Of a DNA stretch of 64,000 nucleotides, positions 3,030 through 59,573 are shown in pieces. Position numbers and translations under genes: made by a program. The notes under the pieces were generated by a model. It was given only the letters and a program-made list of their open reading frames with translations, did no database searches and was not told where the DNA came from. The first letter of the stretch is position 1. Every line of letters starts with the position of its first letter. The DNA comes from Nematopogon swammerdamellus. Lineage: Eukaryota; Arthropoda; Insecta; Lepidoptera; Adelidae. Where the stretch lies: contig OX336338.1 in NCBI GenBank assembly GCA_946902875.1, forward strand, positions 8,609,971 to 8,673,970, read 5' to 3'.

Positions 3030-3417
3030 ATATATTTTTTTTTTATGGAACCTGACACGGTTGGCTACATCACCTACAACATCCGTGATGTCAGCCCATA
3101 ACACAGGGTGAACTAGGTGCCATGTCAGTGCTTCCCTTCATTTCATGTCGGCTACACTAAACTGGACGGAAAACACGAACTATTTTTACATAGCCGTTTC
3201 GACCGACGTTTCGTTCAGTGCGGTGGTACCAACCCGGCCGGGATAAACCCTACCACCTAGTAAGGTAAGAAGGGAAGGGACCTACAGTTTAACGTGAAAT
3301 CCGAACCACGGTCAGCCTCCAACGGTCGAGCGGTCACCCATCCAATCACTGACCGCGCTCAGCGTTGCTTAATAACAGTTGACTAACCAACCGCGCCACT
3401 GAGCTACCGAGGCTGAC
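3030..3417 (-). mobile_element. SINE with composite tRNA/5S head, nearly full length (copy 1)
   Basis: On the minus strand the head has GGTAGCTCAGTGG (tRNA A-box-like), then TTAAGCAACGCTGAGCGCGG and GATTGGATGGGTGACCG, which resemble the internal promoter of 5S rRNA, then GTGGTTCGGATTTCACG (B-box-like). The body has CTAGGTGGTAGGG, CACCGCACTGAACGAAACG and ATGTAGCCAACCGTGTCAG, and ends in an A/T-rich tail. Among the most complete copies in the window; at least eleven relatives or fragments follow. Confidence 0.8.
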
Positions 3418-4595
3418 GAATTTTCTTATCCCTTAGTCGACTTTTACGACATGCGACGGGGAGAGATCGCTCTAAAAACTAAATAAAATTTTATTTTACA
3501 TTAATATGGCGGGCCAATTTTATTGAAAAAAAATATAAAAAGTTTCAACTAACATATCGTGTGGGGTATCATTTGCTAATTGGAAGGATTCTAAAAATTT
3601 TTTTTTTTCAATTTTAAGTTCCATGGTAAGTATAGCGAAAATGTGCAAAAAATTACAATTTTTACTTTCATTTGGTTAGTAGATATTAAGCCATAGATAA
3701 CAGGAAAACTGCAGGTTTTTTCGACAATGTAATATTTTCGTAGAAAAAACATATTTTTGTTTTAGTACGGACCCATAATTTATTTGTGCGAGCCTGACTC
3801 GTCTTTTCTCGTCAGTATAAAACGCTGTAAATCAGGTTAGTTTCGCGAACCGCTTCATGTATTAGAGCGAACTAGAGCAAGACCTCTCGGATTCTGCAAT
3901 CAGATGCGAGCTCAAAGTTAGTCGTAATGTTAACGTCAAATTGAGACAGACTCAAAAGGGATCTCTCCTGTCCTGAGGCGGTGTGCGGTTGCTTTGTTAA
4001 ACGCATATAGCGAATCGGTTTTAACAGGTAAGAACATGTCATGAGCAGACATACGAACTTTTCAACTTTATTAACTAACATAAACCGTCACGGCTCTATT
4101 CTGCTTATGCCATTTCTACAGTAAAGCATACACGGCCAGGGAAACCTCATTTCATGGTAGACGAACTGCACCAGGCGCTGCTGGCTTCCTCCGCTAAATT
4201 GCTGCAACATTATACCAAAGTTGGGCTGCAGTATAATCGAGAATGTTATAAGTAGCAATAAATTTTCTCTCCTATTCGGATGGACAGAAAACTGCTTCGG
4301 TTAAAAGGCAACATAAATAGGTACCCTATTCATTTTAAATTCTCTTCAAATTGATTTATCCAGATTTTTTAAACTTTTTTTTCTTTAGATAATGTTATAC
4401 CTGTGCGTGCAGTAGGACTCAAAATAATTTAATAAAAATTCAAAGTGCAAATGGCAGTCACATTTAAAATTTAATAATATGTTTTCCTAATTATTGTGCA
4501 TAATAAAAAAAAAAATAAAATTAATTTAATTTAGGCCGCATTAAACTAATACACCCCCATAGTGGCTATTATACTCTTCAAAGATTAAGAGATAA
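3418..4595. other. No gene seen; short piece of repeat family B
   Basis: 3425-3475 (CTTATCCCTTAGTCGACTTT, ACGACATGCG) matches family B copies near 8875, 37680 and 58580. The rest is AT-rich, with no supported coding or RNA feature. Confidence 0.4.
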
Positions 4596-36624: not shown

Positions 36625-38193
36625 ATGACTTTCGATTCTCCCAGATCCCTCACGCCCGCGCCCGTGCTCCGCCGCAACCACGACCGCTTGCGGAAATTAT
36701 TCCAGTTAGCTGAAGAAGACTCGGTAAATTTGGTTTTTAGGGTTCCGTATCCGGTACGGGACCCTATTACTAAGCCTACGCCGTCTTTCTGTCTGTCCGT
36801 CTGTCTGTCCGAGGGCTGTATCTCTTGAACCGTAATAGGAAGCCCGTTGAAAATTTCACAGAATATTTGTTATTCATTATGGCCGATATAACAACAAATA
36901 GGAAAAAGTAAAAAATTCACGGGGGTTCCCATATAGAAGAAACCAAAAAGTGTATGCGCGCGCGCCATCTACCGAATAGATTATGAAGCATTTTAACTAA
37001 TCGTGACATTTAACTATGAGGCATTCCATAACACGCCATAGATGGCGTGAGTGGCGCTAGCCGTGACATGGTGATACGGAACCCTCGGTGCGCGAGTTCG
37101 ACTCGCACTTGGCCGGTTTTTTTTATGTTTTTTTCTTCTACTTTTTTATTAATTAGCTACATCTCGTTATGTCGCAGGTGCCCTAATTTATGGTTTGCAA
37201 TAAATGTCAATCATGGAGCAACTCATGCTCTGATAAAAATGCACTTATAATTATTCACAGACCCATTATGAGGTTTTGAAGAAACACCAAGAGATAATTT
37301 TTGTGTTTTTTTTTTTAGATCATCTGCCTAGATGTTTCCCTGATCTCCACCTCAATTAATTCTGCTGTTTGTATTTTCTAATATGTCGCTAGAGCAGTTT
37401 GTTAAAACTTCAGATTTCCTCCACATACATACATACATTGGTATCACACACGCTGAATCCCGAAAATCGAGGTAAGCAGAGTAATCGGTGCTATGCTGCA
37501 AGAACTCTGGTAAATTACAGCACAACACCGACCACCACGCTCCGCAAAGCATTCGAACAAGATTCAATCAATCAAGCAGCAAGTAAGGCACGACGACCCA
37601 CCTGCTGCTTGACTCGTTGTAAGTACCGTGCCAAGGTGAGAGTTGGAAAGCCTGTCGCCCTTTAGCACGGCATCTTCTCCTTATCCCTTAGTCGCCTTTT
37701 ACGACATGCATGGGGATAGATGCAGTGGGGATGTTCTTTTTATTAAGTACCGGCCCCACACGGCCCTACACGAAGGTATTTTTTCTTTTAGTCGGTCAGT
37801 CTCCGTTTAGTGACAGACACGTTTATGTGTCCATTGCTGGACATAAGCCTCTCCAATTAGGTAGGACCCATTGCCGACAACAAGACGACTCTGTTAAAAT
37901 GTTCTAACTGTTAACAGGACAAAGAAATGCTGTTCCCGCCGATGCAACAACGGCGTGATACACCGTGCTCCACGTCGTCGTGTCCTCGCCTGTGCCGCTG
38001 TGAGTCGACCGCCTGTGCGGAGGCTGAATCTACTTCGACTGGTAGTTCCACTACGGCTTCGACTACAATTTCGACTGAGGGTTCGACTAGCCGGACCTTC
38101 GCGTGGCGCGAGAACTTCAGAAAACTATGGCGTACGATCAGACTGAAGCCAACACCATCGCAGTCAAATAGAAAAACGTTTCCGTTAAATTAA
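36625..38193 (+). CDS. Small two-exon gene 2, paralogue of gene 1 (124 aa predicted)
   Basis: Exon 1 is 36625-36723 (33 codons, MTFDSPRSLTPAPVLRRNHD.. to LAEEDS, donor TCG|GTAAAT); exon 2 is 37918-38193 after TTAACAG, reading DKEMLFPPMQQRRDTPC. Intron phase 0 as in gene 1. The middle part is unusually rich in Ser/Thr (CESTACAEAESTSTGSS..), which could be a phosphorylation-prone linker. The C-terminus has FRKLWRTIRLK, matching the IRKLWRTIKMK of gene 1, followed by a short extension. Shared features with gene 1: promoter, 42-nt 5'UTR, EML..PM block, paired cysteines and C-terminal motif. The introns differ in size because this one has collected repeats. Family not recognised. Confidence 0.7.
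36738..37125 (+). repeat. Family C copy inside the gene 2 intron
   Basis: TTTTTAGGGTTCCGTATCCG to CTCGCACTTGGCCGGTTTTT, with the (GTCT)n tract and the CGCCATCTACCGAATAG landmark. Begins about 15 bases after the splice donor. Confidence 0.85.
37485..37775 (+). repeat. Repeat family B copy, best preserved
   Basis: GCTATGCTGCAAGAACTCTG, ACAGCACAACACCGACCACC, GACCCACCTGCTGCTTGACT, CTTATCCCTTAGTCGCCTTT, ACGACATGCATGGGGATAGA and TAAGTACCGGCCCCACACGG. Confidence 0.75.
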
Positions 38194-41776: not shown

Positions 41777-43291
41777 TTTTTTAGGGTTCCGTACCTCAAA
41801 GGAGGAAAAAACTGAACCCTTATAGGATCACTTTGTTGTCCGTCTGTCTGTCTGTCTGTCAAGACCTTTTTTCTCAGGAACGGGTAGACGTATCAAGTTG
41901 AAATTAATATCAAATACTAAGGTCTACGAAACCTTTGAGGTGTAGAAAATGCAAGCTTCTAGGTCAACGGAATCACTAGATACGCCCATTTAAGTCACAT
42001 ATTTTGCTACCGGCAAATCAAATCAAATCCTATAGAGTACTTCCCGGTAACCTAGAATCATGAAATTTGGTAAGAAGCAAGGTCTCACAGCACAAGTAAA
42101 GGAAAAAATCTAAAATTGTAAATTCATAGTTATGTGGCATTAAAAAAATTGTTTGTTTGTTTTCTATGTCAAGGTCCCTTTTTCTCAGGAACGGATCAAG
42201 ATAACAAATTGAAATTAATACGAAATACTAAGATCTACGATCTCTTTAAGGTGTAGAATAGTAAAGCTTCTAAATCAACGCAATCAAAAGATACGGCCAT
42301 CTATGTCATATTTCATACTCGCAAACTCACTCAAAACAAATCAAAACCTATAGGGTATTTCCCGTTAACATAGAATCATAAAATTTGGTAAGAAGCAAGG
42401 TCTTACAGCACAAGTAAAGGAAAAAATCCGAAAATTGTAAAATTGTAGTTATTGACATTAAAAAAATAAATATTGTTTTGTATGCCAAGGACCCCCTTTC
42501 TCAGGAACGGATCAAGATAACAAATTGAAATTAATATGAAATACTAAGAGCTACGATCTCTTTACGGTATAGAAAATGCAAGCTTCTAAATCAACGCAAT
42601 CAAAAGATACGGCCATCTATGTCAGATTTCATACTCGCAAACTCACTCCAAACAAATCAAAACCTATAGGGTATTTCCCGTCAACCTAGAATCATAAAAT
42701 TTGGTAATAAGCAAGGTCTCATAGCACACGTAAAGGAAAAAATCCTAAAATTGTAAACTTGTAGTTATGATATTAAAAAAAATTTGATTGTTTTGTGTGT
42801 CAAGTCAAGACCCTTTTTCTCAGTAACGAGTCAAGATATCAAATTGAAATTAATATGGAATACTAACGTCTGCGATCCCTTCGAGTTATATAAAATGAAA
42901 GCTTCTAAATCAATATAATCAAAACATACGGCTATTTATGGCAAATTTTAATACTTGCAAACTCATTCAAATGAAATCAAAACCTATAGGGTACTTACGT
43001 TGACCTGGAGTAATGAAATTTCGCAAGAAGCATGGTCTCACATCACAAGTAAAGAAAAAATCCGAAAATTTTAGATATTATGTCGTTATGTCGTAGTCAT
43101 AATATAAGAAATATATTTTTGTATAACTTCACGAATGCCGCACAGTCAAACCATTGCTGTAGTGTTTATTTAGGCGTTCGTGATTTTCCAAAACAATTGT
43201 TTTTGTACATACCTACATAATACAAATATATTGAGTGATGCTGATGATACGGAACCCTCGGTGCGCGAGCCCAACTCGCACTTGCCGACTT
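41777..43291 (+). repeat. Family C element with fourfold internal tandem repeat
   Basis: Family ends TTTTTTAGGGTTCCGTACC and GATACGGAACCCTCGGTGCG..CACTTGCCGACTTTT bracket about 1.5 kb. Inside, a unit starting CAAGACC..TTTTCTCAG.AACG recurs at about 41860, 42170, 42486 and 42806 (periods 310-320), each containing GAAATTAATA..AATACTAA, AAACCTATAGGGTA and CACAAGTAAAGGAAAAAATC. The variant at 5255-5680 holds a single unit. No reading frame. Confidence 0.85.
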
Positions 43292-43980: not shown

Positions 43981-44712
43981 ATGAAAGTTTGATTCTGATA
44001 ATAATTCCAAAAATTTACGAATAATATAGGGTGTACCCGGCCGGATACCGAGAATATACGACGCTCGGCGGGCGTCATGTTTTTGCAATTTCATTCGAAT
44101 GTTTGGTCAGTATTTAGATGAATAATTTATTCGAGCTTCTGGTATATTCTGATTGGGAGAGGTTCCGATGAAAAACTGGTGATTTATTATTTATAGACAT
44201 CCGTCCGTACGATATATTTTATGCGGCTACCTTTGGAGACGTGCTTAATAATGTAGGTACCTACCTACATAAGGCTCGGGATTTTTTCACCTCACGCATG
44301 TAACATATGATTTATAATTTTTGAAGCTAAGCTTCTATAGCGTCGTTGCGCGCTCGCCCGCCTGAAACGTAGACAGAAAAAATAGTTCTGGACTCCGCAC
44401 TTCATACTTCAATTATTACTAAAACGAGACACCGTGGTTATGGTAGTGTGCGTATCGCGTAATACAGGACCGACCATCTCAAGAGATCGCAGTGATATTG
44501 TGTCATCCTTTTTCCACGCGCAGTAATCCCGTATCGCTTGCCTGCACGCTCCACGCAAACATTTACGTGTTCCAAAACAAGCGAATGTCGCACGTAGTCG
44601 ATCGATAAATTGCCGCTTGCTTCAACGGCTCAAAACTATGGAGGTGGCTTTTTACTTCTTATTATTAAATTATTTATTAAAAACATTTATTGCAATTTTT
44701 TTCGTTTATTTT
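43981..44712. other. No gene seen
   Basis: No landmark except GC-richer text near 44335-44370 and 44510-44560. Confidence 0.3.
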
Positions 44713-44972
44713 TTTTATGGAAACTGACACGGTTGGCTACATCACCTACAACGTCCGTGATGTCAGCCCATAACACCGGGTGAACTAGGTGCCATGTCAG
44801 TGCTTCCCCCTTTGATCGTGCCGGCTACACTGAACTGGTCGGAAAACACAAACTATTTACATAGCCGTTTCAACCGACGTTTCATTCAGTGCGGTGGTAT
44901 CAACCCGGGCGGGTTAAACCCTACCACCAAGTAAGATTAGGAGGGAAGGGACCTACAGTTTTACGATTTACA
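44713..44972 (-). mobile_element. SINE copy without head
   Basis: TTATGGAAACTGACACGGTT to AGGGAAGGGACCTACAGTTT on the plus strand: tail and body of the SINE on the minus strand. Confidence 0.8.
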
Positions 44973-54157: not shown

Positions 54158-54162
54158 GGCCG
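54158..54162. repeat. Target site duplication of the RAG1-like element, left (GGCCG)
   Basis: GGCCG here and at 58532-58536. Joining the flanks gives GTGTGGGGCCGGTACTTTA, which matches the reverse complement of the end of family B (compare AAGTACCGGCCCCACAC near 37745). An equally good reading is a 4-bp GCCG duplication with ends starting CCACA. Confidence 0.75.
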
Positions 54163-54163
54163 C

Positions 54164-54650
54164 CACAATGTGTTACGGAAGCCATTTTTCGGACACCCGC
54201 TTTTTATTATAGAAACTGATAGAATGAATCATTTAAAACACTAGAGTAGAACTCCCGTAGTTCCAAAATGCTTAACAAAGAAAATTTTTTTTTTTGAAAT
54301 TTCAGAAATTTATTTCCCGATGTAGTGAAAAAAAAATCTACACTAAAAACTAAAAGTATTACAAATGAATGGTATAGGTATTTCAAAAGTACATTGCAAG
54401 CCTTAATTTTCAGAGGCTTAACCAAACTCATAACTTGCTTAGAATCAGAGAAATAATTTATTTTGAATTTTTTGTTTTTATTTTTTTTCTAAAGAACTCC
54501 GCCTTTTCGGGAAAAGATATTAACATGAAAATGAAGATCTTTTATTGTTCTATTCACTAAAAAAAAACCACATCCAGATCTTGTGGAGTATAGATAATGT
54601 AGGCTCTTTTAGTTATATCCGGTTTTTTTGGCGGTAGGGTTGTCACATCT
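54164..54650 (+). repeat. Left long terminal inverted repeat
   Basis: Pairs with 58056-58531 over nearly its whole length: GGACACCCGCTTTTTATTAT, GAACTCCCGTAGTTCCAAAA, CTTAGAATCAGAGAAATAAT, AGAACTCCGCCTTTTCGGGA, ACCACATCCAGATCT and GGGTTGTCACAT are all mirrored, with small indels in homopolymers. Confidence 0.92.
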
Positions 54651-54959
54651 TTGAAAAATAAAAATACTTATCGGGATATTTATGCATGTAATAAAAATTA
54701 TACTAAAATTAGCGTAATTTGCAAGCTACTAATGATGATGATGAGTGTTGGCGCCAATCTGCATTCTAAGTTTGAAAACCCTACAGATAATATTATTATG
54801 CTCGCTCACTGGCAGGCAAGAACGCGCGAGTGACATTTGACGTTAAATTGACATACTAGAGTCTTAAATTAAGCTGGCTGATTTTGAAAAAGCTTCTACG
54901 TTCGAAATATATTTAAATTCAAAATTTCGAAATTTCTTAGCCGCTATTAAAAAAAGGAA

Positions 54960-55167
54960 AGGGCTCACTTCACGGTCACTTTCAGAGGTACCTAAGCAGG
55001 ACATAGCGGCCAGAAAAGTGTGTCAGTTCTTCCCGAGGAAACTCGGAGGGCCTGGGCCTGAGGACTGACTACCAACTGGAGGACCCATTCGGGCGGGTGA
55101 AGGCTGCCCTGAACAATAAGTGTAATTTCATTCCAGGGCTCTAAGTGATCAACGGGGGTGAAGCATC
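54960..55167 (+). promoter_or_regulatory. Leader of the transposase gene
   Basis: GC-richer than its surroundings. A TTTCATTCCAG at 55126-55136 could be a splice acceptor for an upstream non-coding exon. A stop (TGA, 55159-55161) lies in frame two codons before the ATG, so the protein begins at 55168 unless splicing joins downstream of that stop. The start has A at -3 and G at +4. Confidence 0.5.
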
Positions 55168-57525
55168 ATGGAGCCGGACAAGACCCGTGATGCTACTTTG
55201 CCTCAGCAGAACCTGACCCGCTCTGCTGGGGGATGTCCTTCTGAGCCCCAAACAGACGACTTAATGCTAGGGGGGCATAAGGTCGCCAACCTTCATGCTG
55301 GTCAGCGAATGGCATTAGAAGCTACGGATAGCGCCGCAGCCGGCTTTCTTCATCCTCTGAGAGTGACCGCAAGTCCGCAAAGAGATGAAACCAGAAAAAC
55401 TTTAACTCGTTTGGACGTGTTTAAGATGTTTACGAACAAAACAAAAGATCTGCCACTATTGGATCGAGTTAATATTGTCTTTGACCATTTTGGTGACAAT
55501 TATGACATTTCTACCACAAAGGAAGAGTTTATGCCTGTTCTATCAACGTTCATAAGCAAAAGTCAGACCAAGTACAAAGAATGCAAATATATGATGAAAA
55601 CATTCATAACAAAAAACAAGAATTGGCTGAGCAAGGTAATCATTAGTGGACAATTTAAAGTGACTGATTCGGCTCAGCTGAGCCCACCACTACCGACAAC
55701 ACCAAAGAGTCGTACGTATTTAGAGTTAAGTACACGCCAACAGCTTCGATCGCGTCGGAAGCTCAAAACTCTGTTAGATGAAGAGCCTTCTGTAAAAAAA
55801 ATTAAAGCCTTTACAATGTCACTCTCAATCGGGGATGAACCTCTGTCATCCAATGCAGCAAAGAATGTAGAAAAGGTGCTCCATTTGTGTTTGGAAACGG
55901 ACAATGCGCATGCGAATGTTTTGAAAAAAATCGAACACCGTACCTTACCATATACTCCGGAAGAAGCACTTGCTGTTGTAATTGATAGAAAATTATCCGT
56001 CGAAACTTATAATTTTCTGCACAGTGATCTCCAAGAGCGTGGATTCCCTTCATTCCCGCCCTACTATAAAGTACAAAAAGCCAGAAAAGACTGTTATCCT
56101 GCTGACATTACAGTATCAGAGAGAGAAGCTTCAGTCCCGTTCCAAGCTCTTTTACAACACACTTTTGAGCGACTACTAAAATTAAACGATGAAGTTGTGA
56201 TACAGTTCTGCGACCAAAAGGGTTTAAAAGAATTAGAATGCTTTCTACAAGGAAACTGGGGTTTTGATGGAAGTACTGGACAATCCCTCTACAAACAAGC
56301 CTTTTCTGATGTTGAAGGTGGGGAAGAAAACAGCCTAATAGCTACAACATTTATTCCGTTGACCCTAATAACCAATAATGGAGGCTATCTTTGGAAAAAT
56401 CCAGCTCCACAATCGTATCGATACTGCAGACCGCTAGGTATTCAATACAGGAAAGAAACTGCACAGTTAACAATGGCAGAAAAACTTAAATATGAACATC
56501 AAATTCACAATCTTGTACCATTAATAGGTGAAACATCAAAGGGACATAAAATAAAGGCCACTTGCGAATTATATTTAGCTGCAATTGATGGTAAAGTATT
56601 AAATGTAATATTGAATACCTCATCTCAAATGCGTTGCCCATATTGTAGCCTAACTGCTACTCAATTCAATAATATAGACATGGCTTTGAGCAAATCAGTA
56701 AATAAGGAGGCCTTTAAACATGGTGTAAGCCCACTGCATGCATGGATTCGGGTGCTCGAGTTTCTTTTACATGTTGCATATAAAAATGTGGTTAAGATGT
56801 GGAGAATACCGCAGAATTCAGAACAAAAGCGACTCGTTGATGCAAGAAAAAAAGAGATTCAAGAACAAGTAAGGCTGAAATTGGGGTTACTAGTAGACAT
56901 TGTTCGTCCTAATTCTGGTACAACAAATGACGGGAATACCGCAAGAATAGCCTTGTCTGACAAAAATCGCCAAACTTTTTCCGAAATATTGGATGTCGAA
57001 AAATGGCTGCTTGACGACTTACATGTTATTTTAACTGTTATGTCCAGTGGTTTACCAATAGATGACCAAAAATTTGGCGAGTTCTGTAAACAGGTTGCTT
57101 ACAAATACGTCCAAAGTTATCCCTGGCATCCAATGACAGTGACATTACATAAAATATTAGTACATGCCGCTGATATAATTAAGTCAACAACACTGCCTAT
57201 TGGTATGCTCTCGGAGCAGGCCTCGGAAGCTAGAAACAAATATTGGAGAAGCGATCGCCAACATCACTGCAGAAAAATGGATCGCATTAAAACAATGACA
57301 GATTTGTTTCACAGGGCTTTAGAATCTTCCGATCCTTTGATATCAAATTCACGGCTACTTCAAAGACAAAAGAAACAACCAAAAATACCGCTATCAGCAG
57401 CAGCAATACATTTATTAAAACCTGTGGCTAACCCAGACTCACTCGAATGTCATCGCAGTTCTAATGATGATGAGACAGAAAACTTAAATTTGGAAGAAGT
57501 CTTAGTACTCCGGGTTGAAGATTAA
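55168..57525 (+). CDS. RAG1/Transib-like DDE transposase, intact, 785 aa
   Basis: Predicted to cut and join the element's ends in the nucleus by DDE chemistry. Landmarks match the RAG1 core in order. First Asp D367 is in WGFDGSTGQSLYKQ and second Asp D474 in AAIDGKVLN. Zinc ligands C490/C493 are in RCPYC (RAG1 C727/C730) and H661/H666 in LHKILVHAADII (RAG1 H937/H942, same spacing). Glu E687 is in SEQASEARNKYWR, aligned with RAG1 E962 in its E-x2-N-K context. The basic residues after E687 (RSDRQHHCRK) also follow the family. Residues 1-70 look disordered; 180-215 is basic. No RING finger is seen. The frame has no stop or frameshift over 2.36 kb, and all catalytic residues are present, so it may be active. 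Assignment to Transib rather than a sister RAG1-like lineage is not settled. Confidence 0.93.
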   Translation: MEPDKTRDATLPQQNLTRSAGGCPSEPQTDDLMLGGHKVANLHAGQRMALEATDSAAAGFLHPLRVTASPQRDETRKTLTRLDVFKMFTNKTKDLPLLDRVNIVFDHFGDNYDISTTKEEFMPVLSTFISKSQTKYKECKYMMKTFITKNKNWLSKVIISGQFKVTDSAQLSPPLPTTPKSRTYLELSTRQQLRSRRKLKTLLDEEPSVKKIKAFTMSLSIGDEPLSSNAAKNVEKVLHLCLETDNAHANVLKKIEHRTLPYTPEEALAVVIDRKLSVETYNFLHSDLQERGFPSFPPYYKVQKARKDCYPADITVSEREASVPFQALLQHTFERLLKLNDEVVIQFCDQKGLKELECFLQGNWGFDGSTGQSLYKQAFSDVEGGEENSLIATTFIPLTLITNNGGYLWKNPAPQSYRYCRPLGIQYRKETAQLTMAEKLKYEHQIHNLVPLIGETSKGHKIKATCELYLAAIDGKVLNVILNTSSQMRCPYCSLTATQFNNIDMALSKSVNKEAFKHGVSPLHAWIRVLEFLLHVAYKNVVKMWRIPQNSEQKRLVDARKKEIQEQVRLKLGLLVDIVRPNSGTTNDGNTARIALSDKNRQTFSEILDVEKWLLDDLHVILTVMSSGLPIDDQKFGEFCKQVAYKYVQSYPWHPMTVTLHKILVHAADIIKSTTLPIGMLSEQASEARNKYWRSDRQHHCRKMDRIKTMTDLFHRALESSDPLISNSRLLQRQKKQPKIPLSAAAIHLLKPVANPDSLECHRSSNDDETENLNLEEVLVLRVED

Positions 57526-58055
57526 TATTCACAATATTTTTTCCGCTGCCCTTAAAAAGAAAAATTTTAGCTTAAGATTGGTATGAAAAATTTTATTTAA
57601 CAATTGTAGTTAATAAAATGTTAGATTAATATTTTTAGTAAAGAAAACTTGCAGCTTGTAAAGAAAAATGGTGGTTTAGGATTTGTAATATTAAAAATTG
57701 TAGTGTAAGATTTGAAGTAAAGAAAAATTTTATTTTAAGATTTGCAGTTAAAAAAGAATATTTAAAGATATGTACTAAGAAAAATATTAGGTTAAGATTT
57801 ATAGTAAATAAAATTAGTATGTCGTATAAAGATCTGTAGTTTAAAAGAGGTACTTTGTAAAGAAATATTGTAGTTTAAGAGGGCAGAAACGAAAAATTGT
57901 TGTAAAGGAAATTGTTATATTAAGAATTTAAATAAAGAAAAGTTGTAGTTTTAAATATTTGTAGTAAAGATAAATTTCAGTTTAAGAATATAGAAACGAA
58001 ATATTGTTGTTAAAGAAAATAAAAAATAATTAAGATGATGATGATGACCCGGGTA
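57526..58055 (+). repeat. AT-rich degenerate tandem repeats, 3' part of the transposon
   Basis: A loose unit of about 35-45 bp, GTAAAGAAAAATTGTAGTTT and AAGATTT, recurs many times between the stop codon and the right inverted repeat. Contains several AATAAA-like signals that could end the transcript. Confidence 0.7.
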
Positions 58056-58531
58056 CAAAATGTGACAACCCTAACAAAAACATATAATTGACCATAACTT
58101 CTATACTCCACGAGATCTGGATGTGGTTTTTTTTTTAGTAAATAGAAAAATAAAAGATCTTCATTTTCATATAAATATCTTTTCCCGAAAGGGCGGAGTT
58201 CTTTAGAAAAAAAAAAAACTAAAAATGAAAAAAAAAAATAATTTCTCTGATTCTAAGCAAGTTATGAGTTTGGTTAAGCCCCTGAAAATTGAAACTTGCA
58301 ATGTACTTTTGAAATACTTATACCATTAATTTGTAATACTTTTAGTTTTTAGTGTAGAATTTTTTTTAACTATATCCGGAAATAAATTTGTGAAATTTAA
58401 AAAAAAAATGTTTTCTTAATTAAGCATTTTGGAACTACGGGAGTTCTACTCTGGTATTTTAAATGATTCATTCTATCAGTTTCTATAATAAAAAGCGGGT
58501 GTCCGAAAAATGGCTTCCGTAACACACTGTG
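58056..58531 (-). repeat. Right long terminal inverted repeat
   Basis: Ends with CACTGTG at 58525-58531 (CACAGTG reading inward), identical to the consensus RSS heptamer; the left end has CACAATG instead. Confidence 0.92.
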
Positions 58532-58870
58532 GGCCGGTACTTTAAAAGAATAGCCCCACTGCATCTCTCCCCGTGCATGTCGTAAAAGGCGACTAAGGGA
58601 TATGACTCCCTATGACACCTATGATGATATGATATGACCACCTAGTAATATAAGAATTACTAGGTGGTAGGGTTTACCCGCCCGGGTTGATACCACCGCA
58701 CTGAATGAAAGGTCGGTCGAAACGGCTATGTAAATAGTTTGTGTTTTCCGTCCAGTTCAGTGTAGCCGGCACGACCGAAGGGAAGCACTGACGTGGCACC
58801 AAGTACACCCGTTGTTATGGGCTGACATCACGGATGTTGTAGGTGATGTAGCCAAACGTGTCAGTTTCAA
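58532..58870 (+). mobile_element. Family B / SINE composite hosting the transposon
   Basis: 58532-58610 is family B reversed (CATGTCGTAAAAGGCGACTA). 58655-58870 is a SINE body and tail (ACTAGGTGGTAGGGTTTACC, GCACTGAATGAAAGGTCGGT, GTAGGTGATGTAGCCAAACG) with an A-rich end. Confidence 0.8.
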
Positions 58871-59573
58871 TAAAAAAAATAAAAAAAAACAGGTGTCCGC
58901 AGTTTGATACGTGATACGTTACGTCCCGTCACAGCTGTTTTGCTCAAATATCACCCCTTTCAGTATTGCATACATACCTACTGAGGAAACCCTGCATACA
59001 AAATAATATTTGTTTCATTATGTCAATGGTACAAACCACAAAATAACCTTTTTGGTATCTACAACCAAACAGTTTGAATACGTCCTACAATCTACAAACA
59101 ATATAGCACTGAGCTGTCAGTGTTTCACACTACAGTTTCACTTTCCCAGAAAAAAAGTGACGTTATACATACCACGATGTATACCTAAGTGAGAAGGAGA
59201 GAGGACAACCTTTTTTAAGAAATTTTAAATATTTTTTAATATGGCCCTACTAGGCTGAAATATATAAATAAATAGATAAATTAAATATACCACTTCCACG
59301 GGCTATTTGGGTTGTAGATGTAGAGACTCTTTGATTTTGGTACATATTTTAAAAGGATTAAACTTTTCAAAATTTGTAAAAAAAGTGGAGTTCTATATCG
59401 TGCCAAGTACCTACTTGGTTTGACTACGGATAAAAAGTAGATATTATTATCTATTCCATTATTTGCATAAAAGTAATTTTTATGTAATTACACTGAAACC
59501 ATATACATAACTGTAATTTGTAATACCATAATAAACATAAAATAATACCATATTGGTCCTGACAGGGTTATAT
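58871..59573. other. No gene seen
   Basis: A 60-codon frame at 59010-59192 is unsupported. AT-rich. Confidence 0.35.

What the first reader, a model, noticed from the sequence alone, without database searches (positions are those of the whole stretch)
54164..58531. Complete RAG1-like transposon with an intact transposase and RSS-heptamer ends
Seen: an uninterrupted 785-codon frame between about 480-bp inverted repeats that start CACAATG and CACAGTG, with a readable target duplication. Known: RAG1/Transib enzymes use a DDE triad and a C-x2-C / H-x4-H zinc site, and V(D)J signal heptamers are CACAGTG. The protein keeps D367, D474, E687, C490, C493, H661 and H666. Inference: this may be an autonomous and possibly active relative of the ancestor of the RAG recombinase.
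Basis: partly seen in the sequence, partly recalled or inferred. Interest (0 to 1): 0.88.

Follow-up and report, generated by a model that had tools for sequence, protein, structure and literature searches.

The report
Intact Transib transposon in an insect
This is a complete-looking jumping gene of the well-known Transib family, distant kin of the RAG1 enzyme that builds our antibody genes; it appears undamaged, but such elements are already known from moths, and its nearest relative of known structure is one of those, not RAG1.

The parts
54164..58531 (+). Whole Transib element by its heptamers (54163-58532 if the outermost C/G pair is counted)
   Evidence: Inverted repeats, end of similarity just outside the heptamers, related site without the element
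54164..54651 (+). Left terminal inverted repeat, heptamer CACAATG at 54164-54170
   Evidence: 370 of 405 ungapped matches with the right arm; 92% over 436 columns; further block 54635-54651
58057..58531 (-). Right terminal inverted repeat, heptamer CACAGTG inward (CACTGTG at 58525-58531 on +)
54158..54162 (+). Left copy of the target duplication GGCCG, followed by one extra C at 54163 before the heptamer
   Evidence: the related site without the element reads GTGTGG-GGCCG-GTACTT
58532..58536 (+). Right copy of the target duplication GGCCG (or 58533-58536 GCCG in the 4-bp reading)
55168..57525 (+). Transib transposase gene, 785 aa, intact
   Evidence: frame; HzTransib 6pqn E 2.2e-90; 76 relatives listed; fold
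55168..55314 (+). Codons 1-49: conserved N-terminal cap, predicted disordered, in a G+C-rich stretch (0.54-0.56 against 0.20-0.42 elsewhere in the element)
   Evidence: 44-69% identity to six capped relatives; residues 1-73 under pLDDT 50; G+C
56266..56268 (+). Catalytic D367
   Evidence: aligned to HzTransib D126
56587..56589 (+). Catalytic D474
   Evidence: aligned to HzTransib D225 and to the Asp of RAG1 TGYDEK
57226..57228 (+). Catalytic E687
   Evidence: aligned to HzTransib E436 and to the Glu of RAG1 GNESGNK
56635..56646 (+).
   Evidence: both cysteines invariant in 34 of 34
57148..57165 (+). H661 to H666, second half of the zinc site (same basis)
   Evidence: both histidines invariant in 34 of 34
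57658..57813 (+). Degenerate AT-rich tandem repeat (period 29, 5.3 copies) in the 3' non-coding part of the element
   Evidence: further diverged self-matches between 57556 and 58020

Best explanation
A full-length, structurally autonomous Transib DNA transposon of an insect, very probably a moth or butterfly, belonging to a lineage of long Transibs many of which share a conserved N-terminal cap. Inferred mechanism, from the HzTransib and RAG enzymes: the transposase binds the two inverted repeats as a dimer, nicks one strand 5' of each CACARTG heptamer, makes a hairpin on the flanking DNA and a blunt transposon end, and joins the 3' ends to a G+C-rich target across a 5-bp stagger. Repair of the gaps left the GGCCG duplication; the extra C at the left junction is most likely a one-base gain during or after insertion. 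Shown here: intact frame, triad and zinc residues, RAG/Transib fold (predicted model), heptamer ends, inverted repeats, and insertion into a repeat of which a copy without the element lies in the window. Inferred: cleavage chemistry, autonomy, host group. Not shown: present activity.
Against: The target duplication is off by one base from the family's 5-bp rule, and GGCCG does not fit the CNNNG listed for Transib-type MITEs of H. armigera (PMC7764229 passages). The repeats differ at 35 of 405 ungapped positions and the heptamers at one base. Homology of the left flank to the site without the element is short: 13 bases, 8 of them beyond the duplication; of three other copies of the target repeat in the window, two extend across the site and the one at 3427 does not. 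One copy of the element seen; the own-genome search did not complete. The window protein reaches no Pfam family above noise; four of six relatives hit PF12940 RAG1 at E 6e-8 to 1e-4, one of them above Pfam's cut-off, and the nearest relative scanned, P0001, does not.
Confidence: 0.95

Rival explanations
1. Same element, but its family uses a 4-bp target duplication (GCCG) and true ends CCACARTG: a Transib lineage that has shifted its stagger by one base. (Not exclusive with the other readings except on this point.)
For: The outermost C/G pair is symmetric and the GCCG copies then abut the ends exactly with no extra base; the site without the element fits equally well.
Against: Transib, RAG and RAGL duplications are reported as 5 bp, almost always (PMC7204232 passages; PMC8355894 passages). 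GGCCG fits the CGNCG preference better than the neighbouring 5-mers tried. A symmetric outer base arises by chance one time in four. One copy cannot decide.
Confidence: 0.2
2. Same element, but an inactive fossil that happens to keep an open frame: full length, no longer mobile.
For: Arms 91% alike (370 of 405), unequal heptamers, imperfect duplication; autonomous Transibs are typically present in one or at most a few copies per animal genome (PMC4411706, part 1 of 4 read).
Against: 785 codons without a stop and all catalytic and zinc residues in place are unlikely to last long without selection or recent insertion (inference); Transib junctions consistent with transposition are reported in baculovirus passed through Trichoplusia ni (PMC4735498 passages; Transib insertions also in PMC6983493 passages).
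Confidence: 0.4
3. A domesticated RAG1-like host gene rather than a transposon.
For: Intact long frame; a single copy in 64 kb.
Against: Sits between full inverted repeats with heptamer ends, inside a dispersed repeat of which a copy without the element exists.
Confidence: 0.02

Closest known systems
HzTransib / Hztransib of Helicoverpa zea (PDB 6pqn, 6pqr, 6pqu, 6pqx, 6pqy, 6pr5; PMC1852546)
   Different: 33-36% identity in the fold alignments. HzTransib sits in another clade. The published deduced protein is 489 aa and the element 3518 bp, against 785 aa and about 4370 bp here, with a roughly 260-residue N-terminal part including the conserved cap.
Relatives P0001-P0008 (unnamed sources), P0011 (Helicoverpa armigera), P0012 (Euphydryas editha)
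   Same: Same 11-row clade, 100/100 support; 46-55% identity over the alignment for the eight that were aligned; cap in 8 of the 11 rows, window included
   Different: No near-identical protein was listed: nearest 55-56% over 86-96% of the query, and 59% for P0009 over 54% (only the 7992 candidates sharing most words were scored)
RAGL / ProtoRAG transposons (BbRAGL, 6b40) and vertebrate RAG1
   Different: 15-17% identity; no RAG2-like frame; no RSS nonamer; no Pfam match to RAG1 domains in the window protein

Membership tests
Transib superfamily | Transib transposase core with DDE triad in register | tested here: met
Transib superfamily | Terminal inverted repeats beginning with an RSS-type (CAC...) heptamer | tested here: met
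   (the heptamer as the family's hallmark is from passages)
Transib superfamily | 5-bp G+C-rich target-site duplication next to the heptamers | tested here: inconclusive
   GGCCG with one extra C on the left, or GCCG exact; insertion itself supported by the related site without the element
Transib superfamily | Only one gene, no RAG2-like gene | tested here: met
   Longest stop-to-stop stretch, both strands, 93 codons in 54164-55167 and 80 in 57526-58531; no profile search for RAG2 was run
Transib superfamily | Nick-and-hairpin cleavage and strand transfer | not testable with these tools
   Needs biochemistry
RAGL / ProtoRAG transposon | Convergent RAG1L-RAG2L gene pair | tested here: not met
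   no second open frame of size; the element ends at 58531
RAGL / ProtoRAG transposon | Closer to RAG1/RAG1L than to Transib | tested here: not met
   625.6 bits to HzTransib against 57.5 to RAG1L (profile); 35% against 15-17% identity
V(D)J recombination signal | Nonamer ACAAAAACC 12 or 23 bp from the heptamer (nonamer letters recalled) | tested here: not met
   1 of 9 at spacing 12 and 0 of 9 at 23; best at spacings 8-29 is 5 of 9, reached by 1186 and 1205 of 2000 shuffles
Chapaev / other DDE superfamilies | Closer match than Transib | tested here: inconclusive

The most novel reading that the evidence does not exclude
A probably lepidopteran lineage of Transib has acquired a conserved, intrinsically disordered N-terminal cap (about 50 residues, encoded in a G+C-rich island in this copy) that in four of the six relatives measured is held at least as tightly as the catalytic core while the next 200 residues drift. 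It would act as a functional regulatory or targeting module of a RAG1-family transposase, independent of RAG1's own N-terminal domains, in an element that may still be mobile.
Probability: 0.3. Interest if true: 0.45.

Novelty: new member of a known kind. Interest (0 to 1): 0.27.

Why it matters
Intact Transibs are working models of the kind of enzyme from which the RAG recombinase is thought to descend, and HzTransib was the only Transib among the 18 solved sequences matched. This element offers a second, distant and apparently undamaged one with clear ends, long inverted repeats and a related site without the insertion, useful for comparative biochemistry. As a kind of element it is ordinary in moths and does not change the picture of RAG origins.

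Tried and rejected
Special closeness to RAG: rejected by profile scores and identities. RSS nonamer: not found. RAG2-like frame: not found. Domesticated gene: rejected because of the ends and the related site without the element.

Copies elsewhere: the own-genome search was asked nine times in the same form and never answered. Viral contigs gave no relative of the protein (7 stretches matched a pattern, none confirmed) and no exact match to a 19-base word of the inverted repeat. Genome contigs was not scanned. So copy number, other duplications and activity are untested.

N-terminal cap in other proteins: two searches with residues 1-60 found only P0022 (query the window protein, 12 candidates) and P0001 itself (query P0001, 18 candidates). 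They missed capped relatives already in hand, so they are too insensitive to show that the cap is confined to Transib. P0017, outside the 11-row clade, has a start that resembles the cap by eye; not tested.

Pfam on the window protein gave only noise. Rfam found nothing at gathering scores in the window. Pfam accessions PF26100 and PF26024, precomputed for some relatives, did not appear in the Pfam copy scanned and were left unexplained.

Tree: 62 of the 76 hits were used, those of 560 aa or more, with the window protein and HzTransib; 14 shorter ones were dropped. RAG1 was not in the tree because only pieces of it were in view. Alignment A1 holds 33 of the 76 hits, picked by me for length and spread, plus the window.

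Full report
Check of the observation. The frame is as described: 55168-57525, plus strand, 785 aa, no stop. The inverted repeats are real: 370 of 405 ungapped positions agree, BLASTN gives 92% over 436 columns and a further short block brings the arms to about 475-490 bp with gaps. The ends are CACAATG and, inward, CACAGTG, and the similarity stops one base outside them. These heptamers occur 8 and 5 times in the window, so only their place at the repeat ends carries weight.

The target site. The junctions read GTGTGGGGCCG-C-CACAATG and CACTGTG-GGCCGGTACTT. The element sits in a dispersed repeat carrying GTCGTAAAAGGCGACTAAGGGATA, found four times in the window with up to 3 mismatches and never in 100 shuffles. 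The minus-strand copy at 37682-37763 lacks the element and reads CCGTGTGGGGCCGGTACTT. The joined flanks score 60 against it, the left flank alone 13 and the right flank alone, with the duplication, 52. The copy near 8.9 kb also runs across the place but aligns less well (28, 10 and 24); the copy at 3427 does not reach it. The left-flank homology is short, 13 bases of which 8 lie beyond the duplication, but in exact register. So the insertion is well supported. The duplication is GGCCG with an extra C on the left, or GCCG if the outermost C/G pair belongs to the element. I favour the first. Transib, RAG and RAGL duplications are reported as 5 bp (PMC7204232 and PMC8355894, passages; Hztransib GCTCG, PMC1852546, passages). 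GGCCG fits the reported Transib target CGNCG at 3 of 4 fixed positions (PMC4735498, passages). Against that, it does not fit CNNNG, listed for Transib-type MITEs in H. armigera (PMC7764229, passages). One copy cannot decide.

What the protein is. HzTransib is the best solved relative (E 2.2e-90, residues 262-738); RAG1L is the only other sequence matched (E 4.8e-6). A profile of 34 sequences matches 18 chain sequences: HzTransib 625.6 bits, 15 RAG1 or RAG1L sequences from 57.5 bits down, and two at E 0.64. The positions of the HzTransib motifs in the chain (109, 208, 419), taken with the published D126, D225, E436 (PMC6941560, passages), put D367, D474 and E687 on the triad with a constant numbering offset of 17. 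In the alignments the Asp of RAG1L GADGMGD, the Asp of RAG1 TGYDEK and the Glu of RAG1 GNESGNK fall in the same columns. All seven residues are invariant in 34 of 34 sequences; 34 is 33 of the 76 hits, picked by me, plus the window.

Lineage. In a tree of 64 rows (62 of 76 hits, those of 560 aa or more, plus window and HzTransib) the window protein falls in a clade of 6 rows (100/99) inside one of 11 rows (100/100); HzTransib lies in a different clade. Ten of the 11 rows are 738-849 aa long and P0012 is 624 aa. Two of the 11 bear names, both Lepidoptera: Helicoverpa armigera and Euphydryas editha. The rest are unnamed, so the host group is an inference. The nearest long proteins are 55-56% identical, and the partial P0009 59%.

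N-terminal cap. Residues 1-49 are 44-69% identical to six capped relatives (P0001, P0003, P0004, P0006, P0007, P0008); the core (261-740) is 55-62% for the same six. The cap equals or exceeds the core in four of the six and falls below it in two (P0003 44 against 62, P0007 49 against 55). Residues 50-130 are at 23-43% and 131-260 at 28-42%. A pattern search, written after seeing the caps, finds it in 8 of 76 hits; in the clade 8 of the 11 rows have it, counting the window, and P0002, P0005 and P0012 do not. The model gives residues 1-73 pLDDT under 50, and the DNA there is 0.54-0.56 G+C against 0.20-0.42 elsewhere in the element. Its origin and function are unknown; searches for it in other proteins were too insensitive to count as absence.

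What it lacks. No second gene of size: the longest open stretches outside the transposase are 93 and 80 codons. No RSS nonamer: 1 of 9 and 0 of 9 matches at spacings 12 and 23, and the best value at any spacing of 8-29 is reached by more than half of the shuffles.

How it works. By inference from HzTransib, whose purified enzyme was reported to make hairpins on flanking DNA and blunt transposon ends as RAG does (PMC6941560, passages), the element is cut and pasted by its own transposase acting at the heptamers. Transib junctions are reported in baculovirus populations passed through moths: 178 and 37 in two Trichoplusia ni data sets and 0 in Spodoptera exigua in one study (PMC4735498, passages), and 51 unique chimeric reads in another (PMC6983493, passages). 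So mobile Transibs exist in living moths. Whether this copy moves is not known. Against recent activity: arms 91% alike, unequal heptamers, imperfect duplication, one copy seen. For it: an undamaged frame with all seven checked catalytic and zinc residues. The own-genome search that would have told was asked nine times and never answered.

Verdict. A real, complete-looking and structurally autonomous Transib: a new member of a known superfamily, with a conserved N-terminal cap as its one unexplained trait. I make no claim that this family or the cap is unpublished; the five literature searches were not aimed at settling that.

Noticed in passing
54963-55362: G+C-rich island inside an AT-rich element, covering part of the 5' untranslated stretch and the first 65 codons; it coincides with the conserved, predicted-disordered N-terminal cap.
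   Followed up: partly
57556-58020: AT-rich 3' part of the element made of degenerate repeats; period 29 bp in the array at 57658-57813.
   Followed up: no
58657-58890: Dispersed repeat just downstream of the element with about a dozen other partial matches in the window, e.g. 44697-44934 at 92% and 3037-3263 at 90%.
   Followed up: no
3427, 8880, 37682 (-) and 58579 (+): Four copies of a repeat bearing GTCGTAAAAGGCGACTAAGGGATA; the one at 58579 carries the Transib insertion.
   Followed up: yes
41853-43070: Satellite-like tandem array, unit 316 bp, 3.9 copies.
   Followed up: no
about 3290-3400 (-): Stretch resembling the inner part of a 5S rRNA gene (resemblance recalled, not from a call), perhaps a 5S-derived short retroelement; no Rfam match at gathering score.
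   Followed up: partly
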